A DNA stretch of 64,000 nucleotides from the NCBI RefSeq assembly GCF_030362815.1, contig NZ_JAUCGR010000001.1, positions 984,024 to 1,048,023 on the forward strand, written 5' to 3'. The notes under the pieces are model-generated. The model saw only the letters and a program-made list of their open reading frames with translations. It did not search any database and was not told where the DNA came from. The position numbers and the translations under genes are program-made. Source of the stretch: Cellulomonas edaphi. GTDB taxonomy: Bacteria > Actinomycetota > Actinomycetes > Actinomycetales > Cellulomonadaceae. Below, piece by piece: positions 1,526 through 13,838 of this stretch (the first letter of the stretch is position 1; every line of letters begins with the position of its first letter).

Positions 1526-2593
1526 TCACCGCTCGGGGACCCACTGCGCCGACGTGATGGCCTGGAAGCTGGTGACCGTGGGCTCGTCGAACACGGTCCC
1601 GGGCAGCCCGGTGCCCACCAGCTCCCAGCTGAGCAGCTGCCCGGTCGCCGGGTCGATCACCAGGAGCCGCAGCGCGTCGGTCGCGTCTGGCCCGTGCATG
1701 ACGACCGCCTCGCCGGTACGGCCCACACGGTCGCGCGTCGTGCCCAGGGTGCGGGCGGCTGGCTCGTCGGCCAGCATCGCCCAGACCGTCGCCGACAGGT
1801 CGGCCGGGACCACCGCGCGGCCGTACAGGTCGGTGATGGCGTAGTAGAGGCAGCGCTCCTCGTCGTCGGTGGAGGCGCGGCACTGCGGGTCGGTGGCGAG
1901 GAAGGCGTCGCGCAACGCGACCGGGTCGCGCGGCAGCTGGGCGGCGTAGTCGGCGTCCATGGTGCCCGCGGGAAGCCGATCGACGCTGGCCGCGCCGCCC
2001 AGGGGGTAGCGGTCGGGGTCGATGACGTCGCCGTGCAGGTCGAGCGCGGGGGCCCGCACCTCGCGGCTGACGACCGAGCCGTCGGGCGAGATCCGCAGGT
2101 CGGTGAACGTGGTGGCGAGCTCGGCGTCCTGGCGTGCGGCGTCGAAGTTGAGGTACCAGGCGTACGACTGGATCCGCTGCACGCCCGAGCCGCCCGTCGC
2201 GGGCTGGGCGGCCGCCGCGCCGGAGATGGCGGTCAGGGTGTCCCGCGCCGACGGCAGGGTGTCGGCGAGCGCATCGTCGACGGTGCCCGCGGAGAACTCG
2301 AGCACGGGCGGCGGCCCGGCCTGTGCGCCCGTCCCGCGGGACTGCCAGGAGATGCCCGCCACGACGAGCCCGAGCACGACCGCCGCCGCGACCGCGATGC
2401 GCGCCGGTCCGCGCGCGGCCCAGGGCCGGCGCGCGGGCTCGGCGGGGACCGCGACCGGCGTGGCGAGGATCCGGGCCAGCAGCGCCTCGTCGGCCGTGCT
2501 CAGCGGCTCCCGGGGGGCGTGCTCGGGCGCACCCAGCAGCGTGCGCAGGCGACGCGCCTCGTTGTCGGCGCGCAGGTCGTCGTCCGTGCTCAC
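1526..2593 (-). CDS. CU044_5270-like membrane protein, probable sigma-factor partner
   Basis: 355 residues. The start is the GTG that overlaps the stop of the upstream sigma factor by 4 bp (GTGA), so the two are translationally coupled. Residues 1-60 are a hydrophilic, charged cytoplasmic segment. One transmembrane helix (IAVAAAVVLGLVVAGISW, about residues 70-88) follows, and the remaining 265 residues are an extracytoplasmic domain with no catalytic motif recognised. This layout (short cytoplasmic end, one TM, large external sensor) and the position directly after an ECF sigma gene match the actinobacterial CU044_5270 family, which is thought to act as anti-sigma or sensor partner. No zinc-binding HxxxCxxC anti-sigma motif is present in the N-terminal part, so direct sigma binding is inferred only from gene context. 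Confidence 0.75.
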   Translation of the reverse strand: MSTDDDLRADNEARRLRTLLGAPEHAPREPLSTADEALLARILATPVAVPAEPARRPWAARGPARIAVAAAVVLGLVVAGISWQSRGTGAQAGPPPVLEFSAGTVDDALADTLPSARDTLTAISGAAAAQPATGGSGVQRIQSYAWYLNFDAARQDAELATTFTDLRISPDGSVVSREVRAPALDLHGDVIDPDRYPLGGAASVDRLPAGTMDADYAAQLPRDPVALRDAFLATDPQCRASTDDEERCLYYAITDLYGRAVVPADLSATVWAMLADEPAARTLGTTRDRVGRTGEAVVMHGPDATDALRLLVIDPATGQLLSWELVGTGLPGTVFDEPTVTSFQAITSAQWVPER

Positions 2594-3162
2594 GAGCCCA
2601 CCTCCCGCAGGTCGCCCTCGCCCAGCACGGCGGCCAGGCGGCGGCGCGCACGGCTGAGGCGCGCGCGCATCGCGGTCGGGCTGCAGCCCAGCGCGTAGGC
2701 CGCCTCGGCGGGCGTCAGGGCGTGCCACACGACGAGCTCGAGCGCGTCCCGGTCGGTGTCGGGCAGCGCGGCCAGCACGCGGGCCACGCGGTCGTCGCCC
2801 ACCACGCGGTCGGTCGGGTCGTCGCCCAGCTCGCGCCGCGCCGCGGCCCGTTCCGCGGTGTGCTGGCGCCGCGACCGCGAGCGGAGCGCGTGCGCGCACT
2901 CGTAGTGCGCGGTGCGGTAGATCCAGGCGCGGCGCATGCCGTGGTCCTCGGGCAGCTCGGCCCAGCGACGCCACGCGGTGGTGAACGTCTCGCTGACCAC
3001 GTCGTCCGCGGCGTCGTCGCCCACCGTGCGGGCGACGTACCGACGGACGCGCGGGGCCACCTCGCGGAACAGCGCCTCGAACGACGCGGCCGCCTCCGCG
3101 TGGCCGGGCGCCAGCGCGTCGAGCACCACGCCACCCCCCGGTCGGATCGCCACGGCTAGCAC
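2590..3162 (-). CDS. ECF-type RNA polymerase sigma factor
   Basis: 190 residues. Residues 25-100 carry sigma region 2, including the DDVVSETFTTAWRRW core-binding/-10 recognition helix and the RAWIYRTAHYECAHALR segment typical of region 2.3-2.4. Residues 128-180 carry region 4 with a helix-turn-helix (LTPAEAAYALGCSPTAMRARLSRARRRL). Region 3 is absent, which defines the ECF/group 4 class. The reading frame opens with GTG, and a downstream GTG (residue 12) preceded by a G-rich stretch is an alternative start. It is coupled by a GTGA overlap to the membrane protein that follows, which is probably its regulator. The target regulon is unknown. The small secreted protein just upstream on the same strand could be a target, but this is inference. 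Confidence 0.9.
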   Translation of the reverse strand: MLAVAIRPGGGVVLDALAPGHAEAAASFEALFREVAPRVRRYVARTVGDDAADDVVSETFTTAWRRWAELPEDHGMRRAWIYRTAHYECAHALRSRSRRQHTAERAAARRELGDDPTDRVVGDDRVARVLAALPDTDRDALELVVWHALTPAEAAYALGCSPTAMRARLSRARRRLAAVLGEGDLREVGS

Positions 3163-3166
3163 CCGT

Positions 3167-3556
3167 CTAGCACTCTGTGGTTCCGAGGATACGGAACGAG
3201 CGAGCCGCCACCGAGGTGGCGCTGACCCGGGTCCCCGGCGGGTAGCAGCGGCTGGTCCCGGTGCCGTCGAGGCCGCTGTAGACGCGCGCGGCCGTCGAGG
3301 CGCGGTTGCTGACCGACCGCGCGGTCGACAGCCCGGTGTCGTACACCGCGGTCGAGAAGGTGCTCACCATCACGCCCGCGTACGGCGCGACGGTCCACAG
3401 GCACAGCCGGCCGTCCGGGCACGCGGACGCGGAGAAGACGAGCGCCACGGAGTCGTCGTCCTCGTCGGCGTGCGCGGCCGTGGACGTCGCCGCCGCAGTC
3501 ACGACGAGAGCGCCGACGAGCATGCCGCTCGCTGCCAGATGGATCACGCGGTGCAC
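3167..3556 (-). CDS. Small secreted peptidase-inhibitor-I36-like protein
   Basis: 129 residues with a classical Sec signal peptide: N-terminal Met-His-Arg, hydrophobic core MLVGALVVTAAATSTAAHA, cleavage expected after AHA near residue 30. The mature part contains CPDGRLCLWTVAPYAG followed by a second small cysteine pair (RCYPPGT and the terminal TTEC). The CPxGxxCLW motif with downstream cysteines is the hallmark of the inhibitor I36/SMPI-like beta-gamma-crystallin fold common in actinobacterial exported proteins. Four cysteines suggest two disulphides. The gene ends only 4 bp before the ECF sigma gene on the same strand, so it may be the first gene of that transcript. A Crp-like site lies 56 bp upstream of the start. 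Inhibitor activity is not demonstrated by sequence alone. Confidence 0.75.
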   Translation of the reverse strand: MHRVIHLAASGMLVGALVVTAAATSTAAHADEDDDSVALVFSASACPDGRLCLWTVAPYAGVMVSTFSTAVYDTGLSTARSVSNRASTAARVYSGLDGTGTSRCYPPGTRVSATSVAARSFRILGTTEC

Positions 3557-3611
3557 GACGCCTCCCCTCCGCGGTCAGGCAGAACCTAGACCGCCCGTGC
3601 GCATCCGCACA

Positions 3612-3627
3612 TGTGACGTGGATCACT
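3612..3627. promoter_or_regulatory. Crp/GlxR-like binding site
   Basis: TGTGACGTGGATCACT fits TGTGA-N6-TCACA with one mismatch in the last base. It lies 56 bp upstream of the I36-like start codon. Crp/GlxR-family regulators of actinobacteria recognise this consensus, but binding here is inferred. Confidence 0.4.
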
Positions 3628-3677
3628 CTAACGAGGCGTCACGCCGCAGGCTCGAGCGGGCACTCACGAGGTGGGGG

Positions 3678-3740
3678 CAGGAGTCGCGATCGAGGGTGGG
3701 GCCGGGTAGGGGGCGGCCTCACCCGCGGTCGCGACTCCTG
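3678..3740. repeat. Long two-part inverted repeat between divergent genes
   Basis: Outer arms 3678-3689 (CAGGAGTCGCGA) and 3729-3740 are perfect reverse complements (12 bp). Inner arms 3694-3704 and 3714-3724 pair over 11 bp with a single G-T, leaving a 9-nt loop and a small internal loop. It sits between divergent genes, so it is unlikely to be an ordinary terminator. It may be a cruciform operator or a 5'UTR structure of the 3874 operon. Confidence 0.6.
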
Positions 3741-3873
3741 CCTCGGTCGCGCGCGTGCACCGATCGCCCCCCGCCCTGATCGCCCAGAGAGCCGGTATCA
3801 CAGCGACGGCTCGGGCACTCCTTCTGTGACACCTCCGGTCGCCGACCGGACGGCCCACAAGGGGGAGGGCAGC

Positions 3874-6759
3874 ATGAACCGGATCACGGAGGCGACGGGC
3901 GGGATCCCGCTCAAGGACGTCGACGCCATGGCCACCAGCATCGCGGGCTCGGGCTTCAAGGCCGTCGAGCTCGCACCAGCACTGAGCGACGCGTTCGGCA
4001 GGAGTCCGAACCGCGCGGTCGCGCTCGCCAGCGCCTACGCGAAGACGCTGCCCACGCTCGACGACCATCGCCAGCTGTTCCAGGCGGCCGCCAAGCTGGA
4101 ACCAGGGGAGCACCGTTCGCTCGTGGACGGCTATCGCAAGGCCGGCCAGGCGCAGGCCGTGGTGCACGCCGTCGGCCTGCTGCCGCGCGCCGAGGGCCGC
4201 ACGATCATGGCGGACCTGCTGCACAAGCCCGACGGCTCGATCGACAAGGCCGGCGCCACATCGGTGGGCCTGTGGCTGCGCGACGCGGGCCAGCAGCTGC
4301 TCGCCGCTCAGACCCCGACGCCGCCCGAGGACCACGACGACGCGATCGTGGACTTCATCGAGGACGTCGGCGACGCCATCTCCGACGCGGTGAGCTCCGT
4401 GATCGACGCGATCGGCGACGCCATCGAGGACTTCGTCGCCGCGATCGCGGACGTCGTCAACTGGGTGGCCACCGAGGTCGCCGCGCTGGCCCGGTCGCTC
4501 GTGGCCGCGTTCGCCACCCTGGCCGACCTGTTCACCAAGGTGATCGAGGCCGGCTACGAGGTGCTCCGCAAGATCGTCAAGGGGCTCGAGGACATCGGCA
4601 AGTCGATGTTCCAGATGCTCGACGCGGCGTTCGCGCTGGCGCGCGACGCGCTCGTGTCGATCCTGCGGGCGATGGACAGCCTGGGCCGAACGCTCGGACA
4701 GCTGCTGTCGTACCTGGTCAACAAGGCCGCCGACCTGGTGCGCAAGGGGATCGACGCGCTGCTGGCGATCGGCAAGACGATCGGCAACCTCATCGAGCAG
4801 GCCGCGGCCGCGGCGCTGTCCCTCGTGGACAAGGTGGTGCGCGCGCTCGTCGAGCTCGGCAAGGCCGTCGGCGAGATCCTGGCGACCATCGTCGCGAAGT
4901 CGCTCGAGCTGCTCAAGCAGGTGGTGTCCACCCTGGTCTCGCTGGGCCGCGCGATCGGGCAGCTGCTGCAGGACGCGCTCGCCCTCGGCCTGGACTTCCT
5001 GCGCAAGATGGCGCAGGCGGCCGCGGCGATCGGTGCGGCCCTGGCCGACCTCGCGACCTTCATCGCGACGGCCGCGGCGGCCGCGGTCAAGGCCGTCGTG
5101 GCCGGGATCCTCGCCGCCACCAACTCGCTGATCAGCCTCGTCATCGAGGTCGCGAAGGTGGGCTTCGCGGTGCTCAAGAAGGTGGTCGCGGCGGTGTTCG
5201 AGCTGGGCCGCACGCTGGGGAACCTGCTCAAGGAGCTGGCCAAGGCCGTCGTCAGCACGCTGCGCGACGTCCTCAAGGCCGCGTTCGAGCTGGGCAAGAC
5301 GATCGCCGAGTTCGCGGCGGAGATGGTCCGGTACACCTACCGGGCCGCGGCCCGGTTCGTGGAGGCCGCGATCGCGGCGGGCGCCGCGGTGGCCGACCTG
5401 CTCGAGTCCGTCGTGGAGCAGGGCTACTTCGTGTTCCGCCGCATGGTCAACGGCATCCTGCAGGCGCTCGGCTCGGTGGCGTCCGTCTTCGGGTGGCTGC
5501 TGGCCCGGGGCGCCGACCTCGCCTCGGAGCTGTGGCGACAGGCGGTGCTCGCGGTCCGGTTCGTCAAGAACGCCGTCAACGAGATCCTGTCGTGGGCCTT
5601 CACCCAGGCCAAGGCGGTCTTCGAGACGATCGTCAAGGCGATCGAGGCGGTCGGCTCGGCCATCGCGGAGGTCATCGACTGGGCGCTCGCGGCCGGTGCC
5701 GCGGCGCTCGAGTGGCTGGGCGAGGTCACGGTGAAGATCGGCAACTCGCTGTCCTACGTGCTGTCGTACATCGAGGACGACGTGCTGCCGGCGATCGCCT
5801 CGGTCATCAAGGGCGCGCTGCGTGCCGGTGCCGCGATCGCCGGCATCATCGCCTGGGCGGTCGAGCGGGCCGCGGCGACCTTGCGGACCGCCGTCGAGGC
5901 GCTGCTGGCGGCGGGGGCCACGATCGGCCAGCTCGTCGTCGCGACGCTGCTGCACCCGGGCGACGCCCTGGGCAACCTGCTCCAGGCGCTCGACGCGCTC
6001 GGGCAGGCGTTCTCCACGATCGCCGACGACGTGTGGAGCATCGGGGGCGAGGCGTGGGAGCGGTTCGTGCTCGCTGCCAAGGAGGTGGGCCGCGGGGTCG
6101 TCGAGATCCTCGAGGCAGCCCTCGAGATCGTGGGCGGGGCCGTGGCCTCCGCCATCGCGATCCTGCTGCGGACCCTGGCGTCCTACCGGGAGATGTCGCC
6201 GCAGGAGAAGGCCGACGCGGCGCTCGTGTTCGGCCCCGCCCTCGACCTGTCCGACGTGTACGTCGCCACCGAGAGCCTGACCAACGACGTCATCTTCGGC
6301 ATCCAGGACTTCTTCACCGGCAACCCGGACTCCCGGGCGTTCGTCACCGACACGCTGATCAACTTCGACGTCGACGACGGCCCGCTCGAGCGCCGCAAGA
6401 TGATCCACGAGCTGACCCACGTCTGGCAGTTCAAGACGACGGGCCCGTTCTACCTGGTCGAGGCGATCCACGCCCAGATCGCAGGCGACGGCTACAACTA
6501 CGGGTACGACGAGGGCGTCGCCAGCGTCTCGATCGTCACCGACTACGCCGGCACCACCAGGAACGAGGACCGCGGCGAGGCGACCGGCGAGGGCGCGCAG
6601 GACGACCTCATCGCGGCGGGCGGCGACTTCGACCACTTCAACCGCGAGCAGCAGGGCCAGATCCTCATGCACTGGTTCGTGCGGGCGGTGCTCCAGGCCC
6701 GACCCGCGGCCGAGGTCGCGGCGTGGGAGCCCTACGTGCAGGCCGTCCGGGCGTCGTGA
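3874..6759 (+). CDS. Long amphipathic-helix-repeat protein with C-terminal HExxH (HELTHVWQ) zincin motif
   Basis: 961 residues from the ATG preceded by a strong GGGGGAGGG ribosome site at 3861-3869; the open frame extends further upstream without one. Residues 1-145 form a hydrophilic helical head. Residues about 150-780 are an unbroken run of amphipathic helices in units of roughly 29-31 residues, with recurring cores such as ALVELGKAVGEIL, TLVSLGRAIGQLL and AVFELGRTLGNLL, poor in Pro and lacking Cys. Residues about 800-961 form a globular end with HELTHVWQ (His845, Glu846, His849) and NREQQGQIL (Glu925), the pairing seen in zincin-like domains of toxin, tail or eCIS-associated proteins. No signal peptide is seen. 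It is first gene of a five-gene coupled operon; its stop overlaps the next GTG. The repeats could coat membranes, form a fibre or act as a tape-measure; which is unknown. I do not recognise an established family for the full length. Confidence 0.85.
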   Translation: MNRITEATGGIPLKDVDAMATSIAGSGFKAVELAPALSDAFGRSPNRAVALASAYAKTLPTLDDHRQLFQAAAKLEPGEHRSLVDGYRKAGQAQAVVHAVGLLPRAEGRTIMADLLHKPDGSIDKAGATSVGLWLRDAGQQLLAAQTPTPPEDHDDAIVDFIEDVGDAISDAVSSVIDAIGDAIEDFVAAIADVVNWVATEVAALARSLVAAFATLADLFTKVIEAGYEVLRKIVKGLEDIGKSMFQMLDAAFALARDALVSILRAMDSLGRTLGQLLSYLVNKAADLVRKGIDALLAIGKTIGNLIEQAAAAALSLVDKVVRALVELGKAVGEILATIVAKSLELLKQVVSTLVSLGRAIGQLLQDALALGLDFLRKMAQAAAAIGAALADLATFIATAAAAAVKAVVAGILAATNSLISLVIEVAKVGFAVLKKVVAAVFELGRTLGNLLKELAKAVVSTLRDVLKAAFELGKTIAEFAAEMVRYTYRAAARFVEAAIAAGAAVADLLESVVEQGYFVFRRMVNGILQALGSVASVFGWLLARGADLASELWRQAVLAVRFVKNAVNEILSWAFTQAKAVFETIVKAIEAVGSAIAEVIDWALAAGAAALEWLGEVTVKIGNSLSYVLSYIEDDVLPAIASVIKGALRAGAAIAGIIAWAVERAAATLRTAVEALLAAGATIGQLVVATLLHPGDALGNLLQALDALGQAFSTIADDVWSIGGEAWERFVLAAKEVGRGVVEILEAALEIVGGAVASAIAILLRTLASYREMSPQEKADAALVFGPALDLSDVYVATESLTNDVIFGIQDFFTGNPDSRAFVTDTLINFDVDDGPLERRKMIHELTHVWQFKTTGPFYLVEAIHAQIAGDGYNYGYDEGVASVSIVTDYAGTTRNEDRGEATGEGAQDDLIAAGGDFDHFNREQQGQILMHWFVRAVLQARPAAEVAAWEPYVQAVRAS

Positions 6760-7631
6760 ACGTCGTCCTGGTGGCACCGTCGGCGGCGCGGGCACTGCTC
6801 GCGCCGCTGACGGCGTGCTGGTCGGTGACCTACGCGTCGCCGTCGGCCCCGATCGACCAGGTGGTGAGGGGCGCGGACGCGGTGCTCGTCGCGGGCTCGC
6901 ATCATCGCGCGCCCCGCACCGTCCTGCCCGGCCCCGTGGTGCTCGACGACGGGCGCCCCGTCCCGGTGGCGTGGCTGCCGTTGGTGTCCGACGAGGCGAC
7001 CGCGCGCTTCGCGCGGGCGGCGGCGTCCGTGCACGCCCGCGCATCCCGGCGCCGAACCGTCGCGGTGCTCGGGCAGCGGCTGTCCCGGTACGACGACCTC
7101 GCGGGGCGGATCGCGCGCGTCGCCTCCGCCCACGGACCCGTGCGGCGGTGGACGTCCTACGACGTGGTGCGCGACGACCTGGTGGCCGGCCTGCGGCGCG
7201 GTCCCGCGCTCGCGGTCTACGTCGGCCACGGCCGCTCCATCGGGTGGGTCGGCTACGCGGGACTGCGGGCGCACCACTTCCCGGCGGCGCCGGGGGCCCC
7301 CGTCGGCGCGGTCCTGTCGCTGGCCTGCCGCACCGCGAGCAGGCAGCGCACCGGGCTGTCGTTCACCGAGGCCCTGGTGGTCCGCGGCGTCGCCGCCTCG
7401 GCCGTCGGGGCCACGGGCCCCACCCTGCACACCGCGAATGCCCGGTGGGCGTTGCGCGTGGCCGACGGCGCCGCCCGCGCCGCCACGGTCGGCGAGCTCG
7501 TCGCGGCGGCCGCCGCCGCGGACCCGCACGCCGACTTCTACCGGATCGTCGGCGACCCCACGGCCCCCCTGCTCGACGACCCGGCGTTCGATCCCGACCC
7601 TGAGCTGGACCCTGAGCTGGAGGTGCCCTGA
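6756..7631 (+). CDS. Gingipain-like (C25/caspase-fold) cysteine peptidase
   Basis: 291 residues from a GTG overlapping the previous stop (GTGA). The second half has the signature of clan CD peptidases related to family C25: a hydrophobic strand ending in VYVGHGRSIGW (catalytic His158) and a second strand ending in SLACRTAS (catalytic Cys191), followed by LSFTEALVVRGVAASAVGATGPT, which resembles the segment after the nucleophile in gingipains. There is no signal peptide or transmembrane helix, so it is predicted cytoplasmic, unlike secreted gingipains. The N-terminal 130 residues are Rossmann-like and may form the first half of the fold. The context (zincin-like partner upstream, acyl carrier protein and ketosynthase downstream, all coupled) suggests processing or transacylation within one pathway, which is inference. 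Family assignment is by motif only. Confidence 0.7.
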   Translation: MNVVLVAPSAARALLAPLTACWSVTYASPSAPIDQVVRGADAVLVAGSHHRAPRTVLPGPVVLDDGRPVPVAWLPLVSDEATARFARAAASVHARASRRRTVAVLGQRLSRYDDLAGRIARVASAHGPVRRWTSYDVVRDDLVAGLRRGPALAVYVGHGRSIGWVGYAGLRAHHFPAAPGAPVGAVLSLACRTASRQRTGLSFTEALVVRGVAASAVGATGPTLHTANARWALRVADGAARAATVGELVAAAAAADPHADFYRIVGDPTAPLLDDPAFDPDPELDPELEVP

Positions 7632-7885
7632 TGCCGACCGTCGACACCGACGTCCTGGCCCGGCTGCGCACGGAGCTGGCCTCCGTCCGCCCGGACATCG
7701 CCGCGACCGCACCCGCGGACGCGACGCTCAAGCACGACCTGGAGATCGACTCGCTCGACGTCCTCGAGTTCGTGGCCCGCGTCGAGGCCGCGTTCGGGCT
7801 CGTCGTGCCGGACGAGGACTGGCAGGCCGTCGCCACGCTCGACTCCCTCGCGGCGTACGTGGCCGAGCACCGGACCCGACCGTGA
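7631..7885 (+). CDS. Acyl carrier protein
   Basis: 84 residues, starting at an ATG that shares one base with the previous stop (TGATG). It is a four-helix carrier domain with the phosphopantetheine attachment motif EIDSLDVLEF; Ser41 is the expected 4'-phosphopantetheine site. Acidic helix II and the downstream segment EAAFGLVVPDEDW are typical. It differs from the housekeeping AcpP in the Thr/Ala-rich N-terminus and in lying outside any fab cluster. It sits directly upstream of a ketosynthase (GTGA overlap), so it probably carries the substrate of that enzyme. A dedicated phosphopantetheinyl transferase is not seen in the window, so modification would rely on the host AcpS or Sfp-type enzyme. 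Confidence 0.92.
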   Translation: MPTVDTDVLARLRTELASVRPDIAATAPADATLKHDLEIDSLDVLEFVARVEAAFGLVVPDEDWQAVATLDSLAAYVAEHRTRP

Positions 7886-9018
7886 CCGACATGACCGCCG
7901 TCGTCTCCGGCTACGGCGCGATCACCGCGCTCGGGGCCGCCGACGACACCTGGGCGGGCGTGCTCGCGGGCGCCACGGCCGCGCGGAGCTGGGAGGACCT
8001 GGCGGACGAGGGCTTCCCGGTGACGACCGCGTGCCGGGTGACGTCGCTCCCGCCGGGTGACCCCGTCCGCCGCGGGCGCGACCTCGCGTCCGCCGCCCTG
8101 GCCGACGCGCTGGCCATGGCTCCCGGGGCGCTCCCGGGCGTCCCGTCCGACCGCGTCGGGGTCTACGTCGGCACGACGATGGGGGAGTCGGCGGGCTACG
8201 AGCGGGCCACCACGGCGTTCGCGGCCGACGAGCACAACGGCGCGGCGCTGGCCCGGCACGTCGCCGGGGTGGTCGGCGCGACCGGCCCGGTGCGGGCGTA
8301 CGGCACCGCGTGCGCGGCAGGCAACTACGCGATCGGGGCCGCCGCGGCGGCGGTTCGCGCCGGACGGGTGGACGTCGCGATCGCGGGCGGCGTGGAGCCG
8401 TTCTCGCGGATCGCGATGGTCGGGTTCGCGCGCATGCGGGCCATGACGCCCGACCTGTGCCGGCCCTTCGTCGCAGGGCGCCGCGGGATGCAGCTGGGGG
8501 AGGGTGCGGCTTTCGTGGTCATCACGTCGGCCGCGCGCGCCGGCCAGGCCCGCGCCGTCGTCGGCGCCCTGGGCCTCGCCTCCGACGCGCACCACCCCAC
8601 GTCGCCGCGTGCGGACGGGTCCGGCATGGCGGCGGCCATGCGCTCGGCGCTGTCGCGCAGCGGTGTGCCCGCCGACGACGTCGACTGGGTGTGCGCGCAC
8701 GGGACCGGCACGCCGCAGTCCGACGCCGCCGAGGCCGCCGCGCTCCGCACCGAGTTCCCGGCGGGCGTGCCGGTCTCCTCGATCAAGGGCGCGATCGGGC
8801 ACACCATGGGCGCCGCCTCCGCGGTCGAGACCGTGATCGCCGTGCGCGCTCTCGAGGCGGGGGTGGTGCCGCCCAACGTGAACGGGCCGTCGGCCGACCC
8901 GGGCCTCGGCCTGGACGTGGTCGCCGCACCGCGGCCGGGTGACGTGCGCTGGGTGCTCAACTGCGCGTACGCGTTCGGCGGGCTGGACTCCGCCCTCGTG
9001 CTGGGGCGTGCGGCATGA
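7882..9018 (+). CDS. Beta-ketoacyl-ACP synthase (KAS I/II-type, Cys-His-His)
   Basis: 378 residues from a GTG overlapping the ACP stop. It is a thiolase-fold condensing enzyme with the complete catalytic triad: Cys144 in YGTACAAG, His273 in VCAHGTGTP and His307 in GAIGHTMGA, plus Lys302 in SIKGA. The GMQLGEGAAF motif is also present. The triad places it with decarboxylative elongating synthases (FabB/F or type II PKS KS-alpha) rather than FabH. It is shorter than a usual FabF (about 410 residues). It is coupled to the degenerate partner downstream (ATGA overlap), resembling KS-alpha/KS-beta pairs in type II polyketide or aryl polyene pathways. No ketoreductase, dehydratase or malonyltransferase lies nearby, so the product cannot be predicted. 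Confidence 0.9.
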   Translation: MTDMTAVVSGYGAITALGAADDTWAGVLAGATAARSWEDLADEGFPVTTACRVTSLPPGDPVRRGRDLASAALADALAMAPGALPGVPSDRVGVYVGTTMGESAGYERATTAFAADEHNGAALARHVAGVVGATGPVRAYGTACAAGNYAIGAAAAAVRAGRVDVAIAGGVEPFSRIAMVGFARMRAMTPDLCRPFVAGRRGMQLGEGAAFVVITSAARAGQARAVVGALGLASDAHHPTSPRADGSGMAAAMRSALSRSGVPADDVDWVCAHGTGTPQSDAAEAAALRTEFPAGVPVSSIKGAIGHTMGAASAVETVIAVRALEAGVVPPNVNGPSADPGLGLDVVAAPRPGDVRWVLNCAYAFGGLDSALVLGRAA

Positions 9019-9506
9019 GCGAGGTCGTGTCGCCGCCGCTGGTCGCCGCCGGGGACGCGGTGAGCGCGTGGGCCGCGGCCACGCTGCTCGACCTGTGGGG
9101 CCCCGACGCCGGGTTCGACGCGCTCTACGTCGCGACGAGCGAGGCGGGCGCGGGCGAGGCGCTCGCGTTCTGGGCCGCGGCCCGGACCACGGGGTTCGCG
9201 CTCGCGGCCCCCGGTGCCTTCCCGTACACGCTCGCCAACGCGCCCGCGGGCCGGATCGGCACCGCGCTCGGCATCCGCGGTCCCTCGGTCACGCTGCTGG
9301 GCTCGCTCGCGGAGGCGCTCGAGGTCGCGGGGGAGGACCGTGCGGACGGGCTCGCCGACCGCGCCCTCGTGGTGCACCTGGACCCCGTGGTCGCCGCGGC
9401 GACGGCCGCTCCGCCGGCCACCCGATGGCGCCTCGTCGACCGGGTCGTCGCGTCGCCGCCCAGCGCCGACGCCCGGCCGGACGTCGCGGCGGCGGCCGGC
9501 CGATAG
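9015..9506 (+). CDS. Degenerate ketosynthase-like / chain-length-factor-like protein
   Basis: 163 residues, starting in an ATGA overlap with the ketosynthase stop. The centre, AFPYTLANAPAGRIGTALGIRGPSVT, matches the dimer-interface segment of ketosynthase N-terminal domains, where it normally precedes the active cysteine. Here the nucleophile position reads LLGS and no Cys is present. The protein ends where the second thiolase half would begin, so it is a half-size, catalytically dead KS-fold protein like the short ketosynthase-like or chain-length-factor partners of some type II systems. It is the last gene of the operon; a convergent membrane-protein gene ends 20 bp downstream. A role as heterodimer partner of the upstream ketosynthase is inferred. 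Confidence 0.7.
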   Translation: MSEVVSPPLVAAGDAVSAWAAATLLDLWGPDAGFDALYVATSEAGAGEALAFWAAARTTGFALAAPGAFPYTLANAPAGRIGTALGIRGPSVTLLGSLAEALEVAGEDRADGLADRALVVHLDPVVAAATAAPPATRWRLVDRVVASPPSADARPDVAAAAGR

Positions 9507-10170: not shown

Positions 10171-10250
10171 TCGGTGCCGGTGACCCTCGGTGCCGGTGAC
10201 CCTCGGTGCCGGTACCCGTCGCTGCCGGTGCCCGTCGGTGCCGGTGACCT
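10171..10250. repeat. 16-bp tandem repeat, five copies
   Basis: Five head-to-tail copies of a 16-bp unit, TCGGTGCCGGTGACCC, start at 10171, 10187, 10203, 10219 and 10235. The first two are identical; the others carry one to three changes. It lies in the gap between the divergent DUF998 and DNA polymerase genes. Confidence 0.85.
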
Positions 10251-10282
10251 GGGCTGTGGGCGGTGTGCGGCAGGCTGAGGGC

Positions 10283-11974
10283 GTGCTCATGGTCGTCGCC
10301 CCGCCCGCGCCCGTGCGCGCGGGTCCCGAGGGAGCCGACGGGCTGGTCCGCGTCGGCGAGGTCCCGGGCGACGTCGCGCCGCACGGCGTGGTCGGCGCGG
10401 CGGTGGGCGGGGAGAAAGCCGTGCGCTGGGCATGGGACGACACCGCCCGCTGGTACCCGCGCCTGCTGGCCGACGGAGTGCGGGTGGAGCGGTGCCTCGA
10501 CCTGCGGCTCGCGCACCGCCTGCTGCGGGGCTCGGCCACGACGGCGGGCTCGCGGCTCGCGACCGGCCCGGTCGGACCGTTCGACGGCACCCCGGACGCG
10601 CCGCCGGAGCCGGATGCGGTCGACTCGCTGTTCGACGTGGCCCGCACGGAGGACCGGCCCGGCGCGGACGAGCTGCTCGCCGAGATCGGCACGCAGGACG
10701 AGGCGGTCGCCGGTCACGCGCGGCTGCGGCTGCTGCTGGTCGCCGAGTCGGCGGGGGCGCTCGCCGCGGCGGAGATGCGCCACACGGGCCTGCCGTGGGA
10801 CAGGGCGGTGCACGACGAGGTGCTGGCCGAGCAGCTCGGCCCGCGCCCGCTCGGCGACGCGCGTCCGCCGCGGATGGCCGAGCTCGCCGAGCAGGTGCGC
10901 GCCGAGCTGGGCGCGCCCCGCCTCAACCCGGACTCGCTGCCGGACGTGCTGCGCGAGCTGAGACGCAACGGGCTGGCGGTGAACTCCACCAGCAAGTGGG
11001 AGCTGCAGGGTGTGGACCACCCCGCCGTCGCGCCCCTGCTCGCGTACAAGAAGCTGTCGCGACTGAACAGCGCCAACGGCTGGACCTGGCTGGACCGGTG
11101 GGTGCCCGACGGGCGATTCCGGCCCGAGTACGTGGTGGGTGGCGTCGTCACCGGGCGCTGGGGGTCGAGCGGTGGCGGTGCGCTGCAGCTGCCCAAGCAG
11201 GTGCGCCGCGCCGTCCGGGCCGACGACGGCTGGCGGCTGGTGGTGGCCGACGCCGCGCAGCTCGAGCCGCGCGTGCTGGCGGGGCTGGCGCGCGACGAGC
11301 AGATGGCGGAGGCGGGGCGCGGACGCGACCTCTACCAAGGCATGGTCGACGCGGGTGTCGTCGACTCCCGCGACCACGCCAAGCTGGGCATGCTGGGCGC
11401 GCTCTACGGCGGCACCACCGGGCAGAGCGCGGCCGTCCTGCCCCGCATCAACCGGGCCTTTCCCGCGGCCATGGCCCACGTCGAGGCGGCCGCGCGCGCC
11501 GGCGAGCGGGGCGAGGTGGTCAGCACCCTGCTGGGCCGCAGCTCGCCTCGCCCGGGTGCGCAGTGGAACCAGGTCCAGGCCGACGCGCTCGACGACGACG
11601 CGGGCGCGGGCGCGCAGTCCCGGGCGCGGTCCCAGACCCGCGCCTGGGGGCGCTTCACGCGCAACTTCGTGGTGCAGGGCACCGCGGCGGAGTGGGCGCT
11701 GTGCTGGATCGCGGAGGTGCGTCGGCGGCTGTGGGCGATGGGGGAGGCGGGAGGCGAGGGGCGGGTACCCGCGCCGTTCGCACGCCGCCCGCACCTGGTC
11801 TACTTCCTGCACGACGAGCTGGTGATCCACGCGCCCGACGAGCTCGCCGACGCAGTCGCCGACCAGGTGCGCGCGGCCGCCGCCGCGGCCGGGCGGCTGC
11901 TGTTCGGCGACTTCCCCGTCGACTTCCCGGTCAGCCTGGCCGCGGCCCGTTCCTACGCGGACGCGAAGGGCTAG
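10283..11974 (+). CDS. Stand-alone family A DNA polymerase (bifunctional 3'-5' exonuclease/polymerase type)
   Basis: 563 residues from GTG 10283; ATG 10289 is an equally possible start. The C-terminal half carries family A palm and finger motifs: motif A VVADAAQLEPRVLAGLA (the usual DxSQIE appears as DAAQLE), motif B around AKLGMLGALYGGTTGQSA, and motif C FLHDELVIH with the catalytic Asp-Glu. The N-terminal 200 residues replace the proofreading region and lack obvious DxE exonuclease residues, and there is no 5' nuclease domain, so this is not the housekeeping polA (about 880-900 residues). Proteins of this type are annotated in many actinobacteria as a second family A polymerase of unknown physiological role. 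A CAGGCT box 6 nt upstream of the GTG suggests a leaderless transcript. Confidence 0.85.
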   Translation: MLMVVAPPAPVRAGPEGADGLVRVGEVPGDVAPHGVVGAAVGGEKAVRWAWDDTARWYPRLLADGVRVERCLDLRLAHRLLRGSATTAGSRLATGPVGPFDGTPDAPPEPDAVDSLFDVARTEDRPGADELLAEIGTQDEAVAGHARLRLLLVAESAGALAAAEMRHTGLPWDRAVHDEVLAEQLGPRPLGDARPPRMAELAEQVRAELGAPRLNPDSLPDVLRELRRNGLAVNSTSKWELQGVDHPAVAPLLAYKKLSRLNSANGWTWLDRWVPDGRFRPEYVVGGVVTGRWGSSGGGALQLPKQVRRAVRADDGWRLVVADAAQLEPRVLAGLARDEQMAEAGRGRDLYQGMVDAGVVDSRDHAKLGMLGALYGGTTGQSAAVLPRINRAFPAAMAHVEAAARAGERGEVVSTLLGRSSPRPGAQWNQVQADALDDDAGAGAQSRARSQTRAWGRFTRNFVVQGTAAEWALCWIAEVRRRLWAMGEAGGEGRVPAPFARRPHLVYFLHDELVIHAPDELADAVADQVRAAAAAAGRLLFGDFPVDFPVSLAAARSYADAKG

Positions 11975-12932: not shown

Positions 12933-13838
12933 TCAGACGAGGTTGGGCAGCAGGACGAAGATCTGCTCCGCCACGAGCACGCCGCACAGCAGGAGCAGCG
13001 GGAGACCCACGACCCACGCCTGCCAGTGGCCCCACCAGCGACGCAGCGCCGCGACGAGCACGGCGGAGGCGGCCAGGGCTGCGAGGGCCAGCAGCAGCAG
13101 GGGCCAGGCGTCGTCGTCGCCGGCGAACGCCGCCTCGTCGTCGGACAGCAGCACGGGGGTCAGCACGGCCCGGGGGGTGGGGAACGCCTCGCCGACGAGC
13201 GCGGCGTCCACCCGCAGCACGTCGTCGGGCGCCCATCGGGGGCCGGTGGCGCTGACGAGCGTCAGCCTTCCCGCGCCGGCGGCGAGCGGGTCGGGCAGCG
13301 GGTCGCCCGTGCGGCGCAGGCCCGTGACCGCGTAGGTGGCCTCCCCCTGGCCCGTGACGGTCGTGATCACGTCACCCTGCCGCAGCGTGTCGAGGTCGGC
13401 GAAGACGCCGCCGTACGCGCCGTGCCGGCCCATCACCACGACGGGCCCGGCCTGGCCGGGGAGCGCGGTGTCGCGGCGGTGGCCCGGCCCCGACAGCAGC
13501 GTCTTCGAGGTCGTGCCCTCGAGGACCACGTCGTCCACCCCGAGCCGCGGGATCGTGAGGATCGCCACGGGTGTGCCCGGCGCCAGCAGCCGGTCGGCCG
13601 ACGTGACCTGGCCGACCGGCGCCGTGCCGTTGGCCAGCTGGGCGCGGAACGCCCAGCTGGCCACGTCCTGGTCCCGCTCGTACCGCAGCGGTGAGACCAC
13701 CAGGGCGTTGACCACGATGCCCAGCGCCAGGGCCGCGACGATCGCGAGGGTGGTGCCCACCAGGCGAGCGCGCTCGCTGGCAGGGACCGGCCGGATCGCG
13801 GCGTCGAGGCTCGACGCCTCGGGCATCGTGGTCGTCAC
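12933..13838 (-). CDS. Sortase-fold membrane protein lacking the catalytic cysteine (pseudo-sortase)
   Basis: 301 residues: cytoplasmic N-terminus, one TM at about 28-50, an extracytoplasmic sortase-like domain (about 85-215) and two C-terminal TM helices. Sortase landmarks are [49 protein letters not shown] and [12 protein letters not shown]. In active class D/E-like enzymes the last motif reads TLxTC; here it is SA, so Ala197 occupies the Cys position. The usual GHR is GRH, which displaces the catalytic His by one residue (His139). Arg201 is kept. The protein is therefore probably not a transpeptidase. It lies one base after a binding-protein gene and 10 bp before pstB. A scaffold or substrate-holding role for the surface binding proteins is a guess. 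Confidence 0.75.

What the first reader, a model, noticed from the sequence alone, without database searches (positions are those of the whole stretch)
3874..9506. Five-gene coupled operon joining a helical-repeat zincin-like protein, a C25-type peptidase, ACP and a ketosynthase pair
Each junction is a 1-4 bp start/stop overlap (GTGA 6756, TGATG 7631, GTGA 7882, ATGA 9015), so the five proteins are probably made in fixed proportion. A cytoplasmic gingipain-like peptidase and a HExxH-bearing giant helical protein have no known reason to be coupled to an acyl carrier protein, a ketosynthase and a dead ketosynthase-like partner. One reading is a system that builds an acyl chain and attaches it to, or uses it to activate, the helical protein after cleavage; another is a defence or secretion device with lipid and protease parts. 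I know of no described system with this combination.
Basis: partly seen in the sequence, partly recalled or inferred. Interest (0 to 1): 0.85.

Follow-up and report, generated by a model that had tools for sequence, protein, structure and literature searches.

The report
Acyl-synthase and protease five-gene system
Some soil actinobacteria carry a tightly linked set of five genes in which a small fatty-chain-building enzyme set travels with two protein-cutting enzymes, one of them on the end of a long rod of fixed length; the combination recurs in distantly related genomes and matches no system I could find described, and its job is unknown.

Summary
Five ORFs (3874-9506) overlap by 1-4 bp at all four junctions. 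The same five genes, in the same order, occur in 7 distinct genomes (4 of the genus, 3 of one other family); gene 1 falls to 38% identity and 26 of 28 junctions overlap. No sixth gene is shared, so the unit is five genes. It is rare: 4 of 81 genomes of the genus.

Refined anatomy: (1) a 961-aa protein with a new conserved N-terminal domain, a helical region of exactly 615 residues in all six proteins aligned (29-residue repeat, no indel), and a C-terminal VgrG2b-like gluzincin domain with presumed zinc ligands invariant; (2) a C25 peptidase with His/Cys dyad; (3) an ACP; (4) a FabF-like ketosynthase with intact active site; (5) a cysteine-free half ketosynthase, best read as a half-size chain-length factor like ApeC of aryl-polyene synthases.

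Best guess (0.35): an acyl chain built on the ACP lipidates or loads the helical protein, which C25 matures. The tape-measure resemblance is compositional (reversed-sequence control), and the own genome lacks the eCIS marker tested. Held papers searched describe no such combination.

The parts
3557..3873 (+). Upstream region between a divergent gene and the operon; ribosome-binding-site-like AAGGGGGAGGG just before 3874
   Evidence: Sequence; no sigma-70-type consensus or terminator found
3874..6759 (+). Gene 1, 961 aa: N-terminal domain + helical repeat region + C-terminal metallopeptidase
3874..4323 (+). N-terminal all-helical domain (residues 1-150), 37 invariant columns in 6 proteins, no Pfam family
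   Evidence: pLDDT block means 60-86 for residues 1-140
4324..6168 (+). Helical region, residues 151-765: about 21 tandem 29-residue amphipathic repeats with a GxxxG-like pair in many; 615 residues in all six proteins aligned
6169..6759 (+). VgrG2b-like zinc metallopeptidase (gluzincin) domain, residues 766-961
6406..6429 (+). HELTHVWQ, zinc-binding HExxH (H845, E846, H849)
   Evidence: H845, E846, H849 invariant in A7
6637..6654 (+). FNREQQ; E925 is the presumed third zinc ligand (aligned with the NxEQQ of VgrG2b)
   Evidence: VgrG2b ligands H935, H939, E983 from PMC6899460 (passages); the pairing with E983 is my inference from the alignment
6756..7631 (+). Gene 2: C25-family (clan CD) cysteine peptidase, 291 aa
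   Evidence: PF01364 29 bits, cut-off 23; six-protein alignment
7227..7229 (+). Presumed catalytic His158 (YVGHGR)
   Evidence: Invariant; place checked in sequence
7326..7328 (+). Presumed catalytic Cys191 (SLACRTAS)
   Evidence: Invariant; place checked in sequence
7631..7885 (+). Gene 3: acyl carrier protein, 84 aa; Ser41 of DSL at 7751-7753
   Evidence: PF00550 37.1 bits, cut-off 20.8; DSL in 7 of 7 genomes
7882..9018 (+). Gene 4: FabF-like ketosynthase, 378 aa; C144 (8311-8313), H273, K302, H307 invariant
9015..9506 (+). Gene 5: half-size ketosynthase-fold protein, chain-length-factor-like, 163 aa, without any cysteine

Best explanation
A self-contained device that couples acyl-chain synthesis to a proteolytically matured helical protein. 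SHOWN by sequence and structure comparison: an ACP, a ketosynthase with intact active site and a half-size ketosynthase-like partner, i.e. the condensing core of a dissociated (type II) synthase; gene 1 ends in a gluzincin domain of the VgrG2b type behind a repeat region of fixed length; gene 2 is a clan-CD peptidase with its dyad; all five are always found together in the genomes examined. INFERRED: the KS and partner build a chain of set length on the dedicated ACP, borrowing malonyl transfer (and probably the reductive steps) from the host's FAS II. The chain is used on or by gene 1's long amphipathic protein, by covalent lipidation or as bound lipid. The C25 peptidase trims gene 1's product, or (as PorU does in type IX secretion) joins it to another molecule, releasing an active membrane- or envelope-directed metallopeptidase. 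The target (own envelope, rival cells, phage-infected self) is not known.
For: Same five genes and order in 7 of 7 genomes with a strong C25 match, with coupled junctions. Identity to the window for L001/L003/L004/L024/L025 falls in the same order in each protein, save near-ties of the last two: gene 1 93/80/53/38/39, C25 88/72/53/39/38, KS 81/73/58/46/44, partner 70/62/55/29/30. The N-terminal domain of gene 1 occurs in 3 of 120 genomes of the other family, the same 3 that have a strong C25 match (overlapping samples). Active-site residues of KS, C25, ACP and metallopeptidase are invariant. Up to 8 kb of flank on each side shows no gene shared by all carriers. The partner profile with all subgroups finds KS chains (best 4.2e-8), and its model's top match is a half-size chain of 7f28, ApeO-ApeC. 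The own genome has a separate cluster with FabD-, FabH-, ACP- and FabF-like genes (labels by eye), its FabF only 37% identical, so this is a second, dedicated set. Helical region: 615 residues in 6 of 6, no indel.
Against: No acyltransferase, thioesterase, KR or DH lies in the unit, and nothing shows that gene 1 is acylated. No cleavage site was identified. No secretion route is encoded and I ran no signal-peptide predictor. There is no sixth gene that could be an immunity protein, which a VgrG2b-type toxin would be expected to have. The model of gene 1 is of low confidence (mean pLDDT 43.7), so whether the repeat region is an extended rod, a bundle or lipid-bound is open. The C25 profile A2 found no solved C25 chain (only a ribosomal protein at 0.033). 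The window-type partner profile alone gave no significant KS match (1j3n at 0.25, below an aminotransferase at 0.043).
Confidence: 0.35

Rival explanations
1. A small specialised-lipid or polyene biosynthesis cluster. KS, half-size partner and ACP make the product with help from FAS II, and gene 1 is a phasin- or apolipoprotein-like amphipathic coat or scaffold that holds it; the two peptidases serve the scaffold.
For: Gene 1 passes Pfam's Phasin_2 cut-off in the window (27 vs 24.9 bits) and in L024 (30.8 bits). The KS/half-size partner resembles the APE-type core. A periodic amphipathic helix is shown by moment and 29-residue period.
Against: Phasin_2 is under the cut-off in L025 (21.1 bits), and ApoLp-III is under its cut-off in all three proteins scanned. 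Amphipathic repeats attract such matches by composition: the reversed sequence matches tape-measure families about as well as the real one; no such control was run for Phasin_2. Strict length conservation is not what a lipid coat needs. It gives no reason for a conserved gluzincin domain and C25 peptidase. No KR, DH, ligase or transporter in the unit.
Confidence: 0.25
2. An antagonism or polymorphic-toxin-type effector: a VgrG2b-like peptidase toxin on a helical stalk, with C25 as releasing peptidase and the acyl set as toxin-activating modification (compare acyl-ACP-dependent activation of RTX toxins, recalled).
For: VgrG2b is an antibacterial metallopeptidase effector (PMC6899460, passages). 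[quoted passage not shown] L024's C-terminal domain taken alone passes Pfam's eCIS_core cut-off (24.8 vs 22 bits). Rare, patchy distribution.
Against: The C-terminal domain is of one kind in 6 of 6 aligned proteins, no variable tips. No immunity gene and no delivery genes noticed beside the unit. eCIS marker Pvc16_N absent from 4 of 7 carrier genomes, the own genome among them.
Confidence: 0.2
3. A self-triggered immune device: C25 acts as a caspase-like executioner that is switched on by stress or phage and cleaves gene 1, which then damages the cell's own membrane, as protease-activated bacterial gasdermins do (recalled).
For: Clan-CD peptidase next to a large amphipathic protein; patchy distribution.
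Against: PADLOC found only weak matches, ZorA 0.0061 to the helical region and TmtA 0.00078 to the ACP. No sensor domain recognised. It gives no role to KS, partner and ACP. No defence-like neighbour was noticed in the loci read.
Confidence: 0.1
4. No joint function: a chance operon kept by close relationship.
For: L001 and L002 share flanking genes with the window on both sides where held, and L003 shares upstream genes.
Against: L024 and L025 share no flanking gene with any other carrier, nor with each other, and L004 only ABC-transporter-type matches of about 31%, yet all five genes and most overlaps are kept.
Confidence: 0.03

Closest known systems
ApeO-ApeC (aryl-polyene KS / half-size chain-length factor)
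VgrG2b C-terminal metallopeptidase (6h56)
   Same: HExxHVWQ, distal Glu in NxEQQ, same fold over 165 of 181 residues.
   Different: Carried behind a helical repeat region and a new N-terminal domain, not on a VgrG or PAAR spike; no immunity gene seen; in actinobacteria.
eCIS core domain (DUF4157, PVC metallopeptidase)
   Same: HELxHVWQ motif; L024's domain alone over the cut-off. Long linkers beside DUF4157 are described (PMC8213781, passages).
   Different: In multidomain eCIS toxins the domain is N-terminal (PMC8213781, passages); here C-terminal. Under the cut-off in the full-length L024 and L025 proteins (21.4 and 17.5 bits) and in the window's domain (12.5). Marker Pvc16_N in 3 of 7 carrier genomes.
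C25 peptidases (gingipains, PorU)
   Same: PF01364 over cut-off in window, L024, L025; dyad invariant.
   Different: Small one-domain proteins; only the C-terminal part of the profile matches (positions 210-373 of 374 in the window); L004 just under cut-off (22.1 vs 23); no solved C25 chain found with profile A2. That PorU is a C25 enzyme is recalled; its sortase role was seen in the start of an abstract (PMC4804311).
Phage tail tape measure proteins
   Same: Long helical repeat region of kept length; many PHROG matches (2e-15).
   Different: The reversed sequence matches about as well (6.5e-14), so homology is not supported; no tail genes noticed beside it.

Membership tests
VgrG2b-type gluzincin domain | HExxH plus distal Glu ligand, domain fold of 6h56 | tested here: met
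VgrG2b-type T6SS effector | Fused to VgrG/PAAR or beside T6SS genes, with adjacent small immunity ORF | tested here: not met
   Not fused; no gene besides the five is shared by the carriers in up to 8 kb of flank
eCIS effector (DUF4157) | Pfam eCIS_core over cut-off | tested here: inconclusive
   L024 domain alone 24.8 bits (cut-off 22), window domain 12.5; full-length L024 21.4, L025 17.5
eCIS effector (DUF4157) | Carrier genome has an eCIS | tested here: not met
   Pvc16_N in 3 of 7 carrier genomes, none in the own genome, 99.97% complete; other eCIS genes not tested
Peptidase family C25 | Profile match over curated cut-off and His/Cys dyad | tested here: met
   29 vs 23 bits; H158 and C191 invariant
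Peptidase family C25 | Proteolytic activity | not testable with these tools
   Needs an assay
Type II KS-CLF synthase | KS with Cys, two His and Lys of the active site | tested here: met
   C144, H273, K302, H307 invariant
Type II KS-CLF synthase | CLF-like partner of KS fold lacking the nucleophile | tested here: met
   A9 to KS chains 4.2e-8; model to 7f28_C and many KAS chains; no Cys in window protein. Against: A5 alone not significant; hhalign to the KS weak, probability 48.6 with A9 and 3.5 with A5
Aryl polyene cluster | KR, DH and further APE genes together with KS-CLF | tested here: not met
   None in the five-gene unit
[quoted passage not shown]
   Same C-terminal domain in 6 of 6; no shared sixth gene
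Phage tape measure protein | Sequence similarity beyond composition; tail-gene context | tested here: not met
   Reversed control about equally strong; no tail genes noticed among the neighbours read
Bacterial gasdermin system | Gasdermin-fold pore protein with adjacent protease | tested here: inconclusive
   Gene 1 predicted helical except in its last domain (low confidence); PADLOC listed no gasdermin

The most novel reading that the evidence does not exclude
A new kind of protein-lipid device: a dedicated KS/half-size partner/ACP set makes an acyl chain that the C25 enzyme, acting like a sortase, joins to (or exchanges on) a fixed-length helical rod carrying its own VgrG2b-type metallopeptidase head. 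The result would be a stand-alone, acyl-armed, membrane-spanning effector that needs no phage-tail-derived injection machine.
Probability: 0.13. Interest if true: 0.92.

Novelty: categorically new. Interest (0 to 1): 0.72.

Why it matters
Each part is of a known kind, but together they fit no system I could find: condensing enzymes of lipid or polyketide synthesis fixed to two unrelated peptidases and a helical region whose length has not changed by one residue while only about four in ten residues stayed the same. If the acyl chain acts on that protein, it would be a new way of arming or anchoring a protein. If not, it still defines a new conserved domain, a new carrier for VgrG2b-type peptidases outside secretion systems, and a type II synthase core in an unexpected setting. 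The questions are directly testable in non-pathogenic soil bacteria.

Tried and rejected
Tape-measure homology of gene 1: PHROGs matches to 2e-15 looked strong, but the reversed sequence of residues 150-765 matched at 6.5e-14; rejected as compositional. Two IMG/VR loci found with A7 (L068, L069) have no HExxH in their long plus-strand frames.

eCIS effector as sole explanation: own genome lacks Pvc16_N. Viral or plasmid carriage: no relative of the metallopeptidase domain, C25 or N-terminal domain in viral contigs; none of C25, metallopeptidase domain or N-terminal domain in plasmids; none of C25 in phages. The KS matches 695 plasmid records, all under 60% identity; not informative.

Upstream sigma factor and small secreted protein as members: missing beside the unit in L003. 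MFS gene: near the unit in the window, L001, L002 and L003, but no flank of L024 or L025 matches, and L004's flank gives only ABC-transporter-type matches. Empty-site search: the DNA-polymerase-like neighbour was found in 75 of 81 genomes of the genus, but the other neighbours were not beside it in the four regions read, so no clean empty site was obtained.

Weak matches not counted as carriers: C25 G427 (1.1e-5; a large protein with no ACP or KS seen in the 3.5 kb read), G489 (2.8e-4), G986 (8.3e-4, stop inside) and G1031 (9.8e-4), and metallopeptidase G586 (9.3e-4); apart from G427 their surroundings were not studied. The match of gene 5 to 7f28_C is partial (TM 0.55, rmsd 4.4-5.8) and its lead over KAS III chains is under 1 Z. 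9s5h, whose chains B and C are the best matches of KS and partner, could not be identified: both chains are full length and the one paper listed for the term was unrelated, so I do not use it as proof of a KS-CLF pair. Promoter and terminator scan empty; GC of the operon is that of the window's surroundings. The window beyond about 14 kb was not annotated.
Full report
OBSERVATION. Overlaps are 4, 1, 4 and 4 bp. In the window the unit is bounded by a divergent ORF upstream and a convergent ORF downstream. GC content is that of the surroundings (74.4% against 74.0%), and no mobile gene was noticed beside it.

RECURRENCE. A scan of one genome per species with the C25 protein gave 4 loci: three Cellulomonas (L001-L003) and an uncultured Marmoricola assembly (L004). 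All five genes are there in the same order. A profile search of 294 genomes of the family of L004's genome gave 5 matches: that genome, two further strong ones (G985, G809) and two weak ones. G985 and G809 again have all five genes in order. Distinct carrier genomes are thus 7, own included; that L001, L002 and L003 are the genomes G712, G158 and G717 follows from contig numbers and positions. Tallies for the C25 query, own genome included: 2 of 297 genomes of the order, 3 of 396 of the phylum, two of them weak, 4 of 81 of the genus, 1 of 316 of the class; these samples overlap. The metallopeptidase profile matched 2 of 396 genomes of the phylum, own and one weak. The system is rare but not a strain oddity. 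In the seven genomes 26 of 28 junctions overlap by 1-4 bp. Flanks: the window, L001 and L002 share neighbours; L003 shares upstream genes such as the MFS gene but not the sigma factor, the small secreted protein or the downstream neighbour; L024 and L025 share nothing with any other carrier, and L004 only ABC-transporter-type matches of about 31% with the window and L002, in up to 8 kb held on each side (L001 and L003 hold only 0.8 and 1.1 kb downstream, L004 2.2 kb upstream). In 120 genomes of the other family the new N-terminal domain of gene 1 occurs in the same 3 genomes that have a strong C25 match (the sample overlaps that).

GENE 2. C25 profile over the cut-off in the window, L024 and L025, just under it in L004 (22.1 against 23). 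No NCBIfam match and no solved C25 chain found with the five-sequence profile. His158 and Cys191 invariant.

FUNCTION. What is shown is a conserved unit with four intact active or carrier sites and a helical region of fixed length. The step from there is inference. The least forced reading is that the chain made on the ACP is used on gene 1's product and that C25 matures it; the gluzincin head is then the working end. A lipid-scaffold reading and a toxin reading are close rivals. The toxin reading lacks an immunity gene, variable tips and a delivery system; the eCIS marker is present in 3 of 7 carrier genomes and not in the own. Defence is not supported by PADLOC.

NOVELTY. Searches of the held papers for 'peptidase C25' with ketosynthase and acyl carrier protein, 'peptidase C25' with operon and acyl carrier, and DUF4157 with ketosynthase gave no paper; a six-term mix gave two, one on polymorphic toxins (passages seen) and one on papain-like peptidases (listing only), neither shown to describe such a unit. 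Two eCIS papers hold none of the PKS terms asked for. Only open-licence papers are held, so this is not proof of absence. I rate it categorically new as a combination, with known parts, and say plainly that the mechanism is not established.

Noticed in passing
3167-3556 (minus) and 2590-3162 (minus): A small secreted-looking protein and a sigma-factor-like gene (labels by eye) lie divergently upstream in the window, L001 and L002 but not beside the unit in L003, so they are neighbours and not members.
   Followed up: partly
12933-13838 (minus): A sortase-like gene sits between a pstB-like and a phosphate-binding-protein-like gene, and does so in L002 too; labels are by eye.
   Followed up: no
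10190-11974 (plus): A family-A DNA-polymerase-like gene (label by eye) near the operon, with a match in 75 of 81 genomes of the genus.
   Followed up: partly
window 3874-6759, residues 151-765: 29-residue periodicity with GxxxG-like pairs and no indel over 615 residues in six proteins; no described protein with this repeat was identified by the searches run.
   Followed up: partly
L024:3-926 (minus): A WXG100/ESX-substrate-looking protein (by eye) some 7 kb upstream of the operon in G985.
   Followed up: no
L008 (G427): A long C25-type protein elsewhere in the phylum, without ACP or KS seen in the 3.5 kb held.
   Followed up: no
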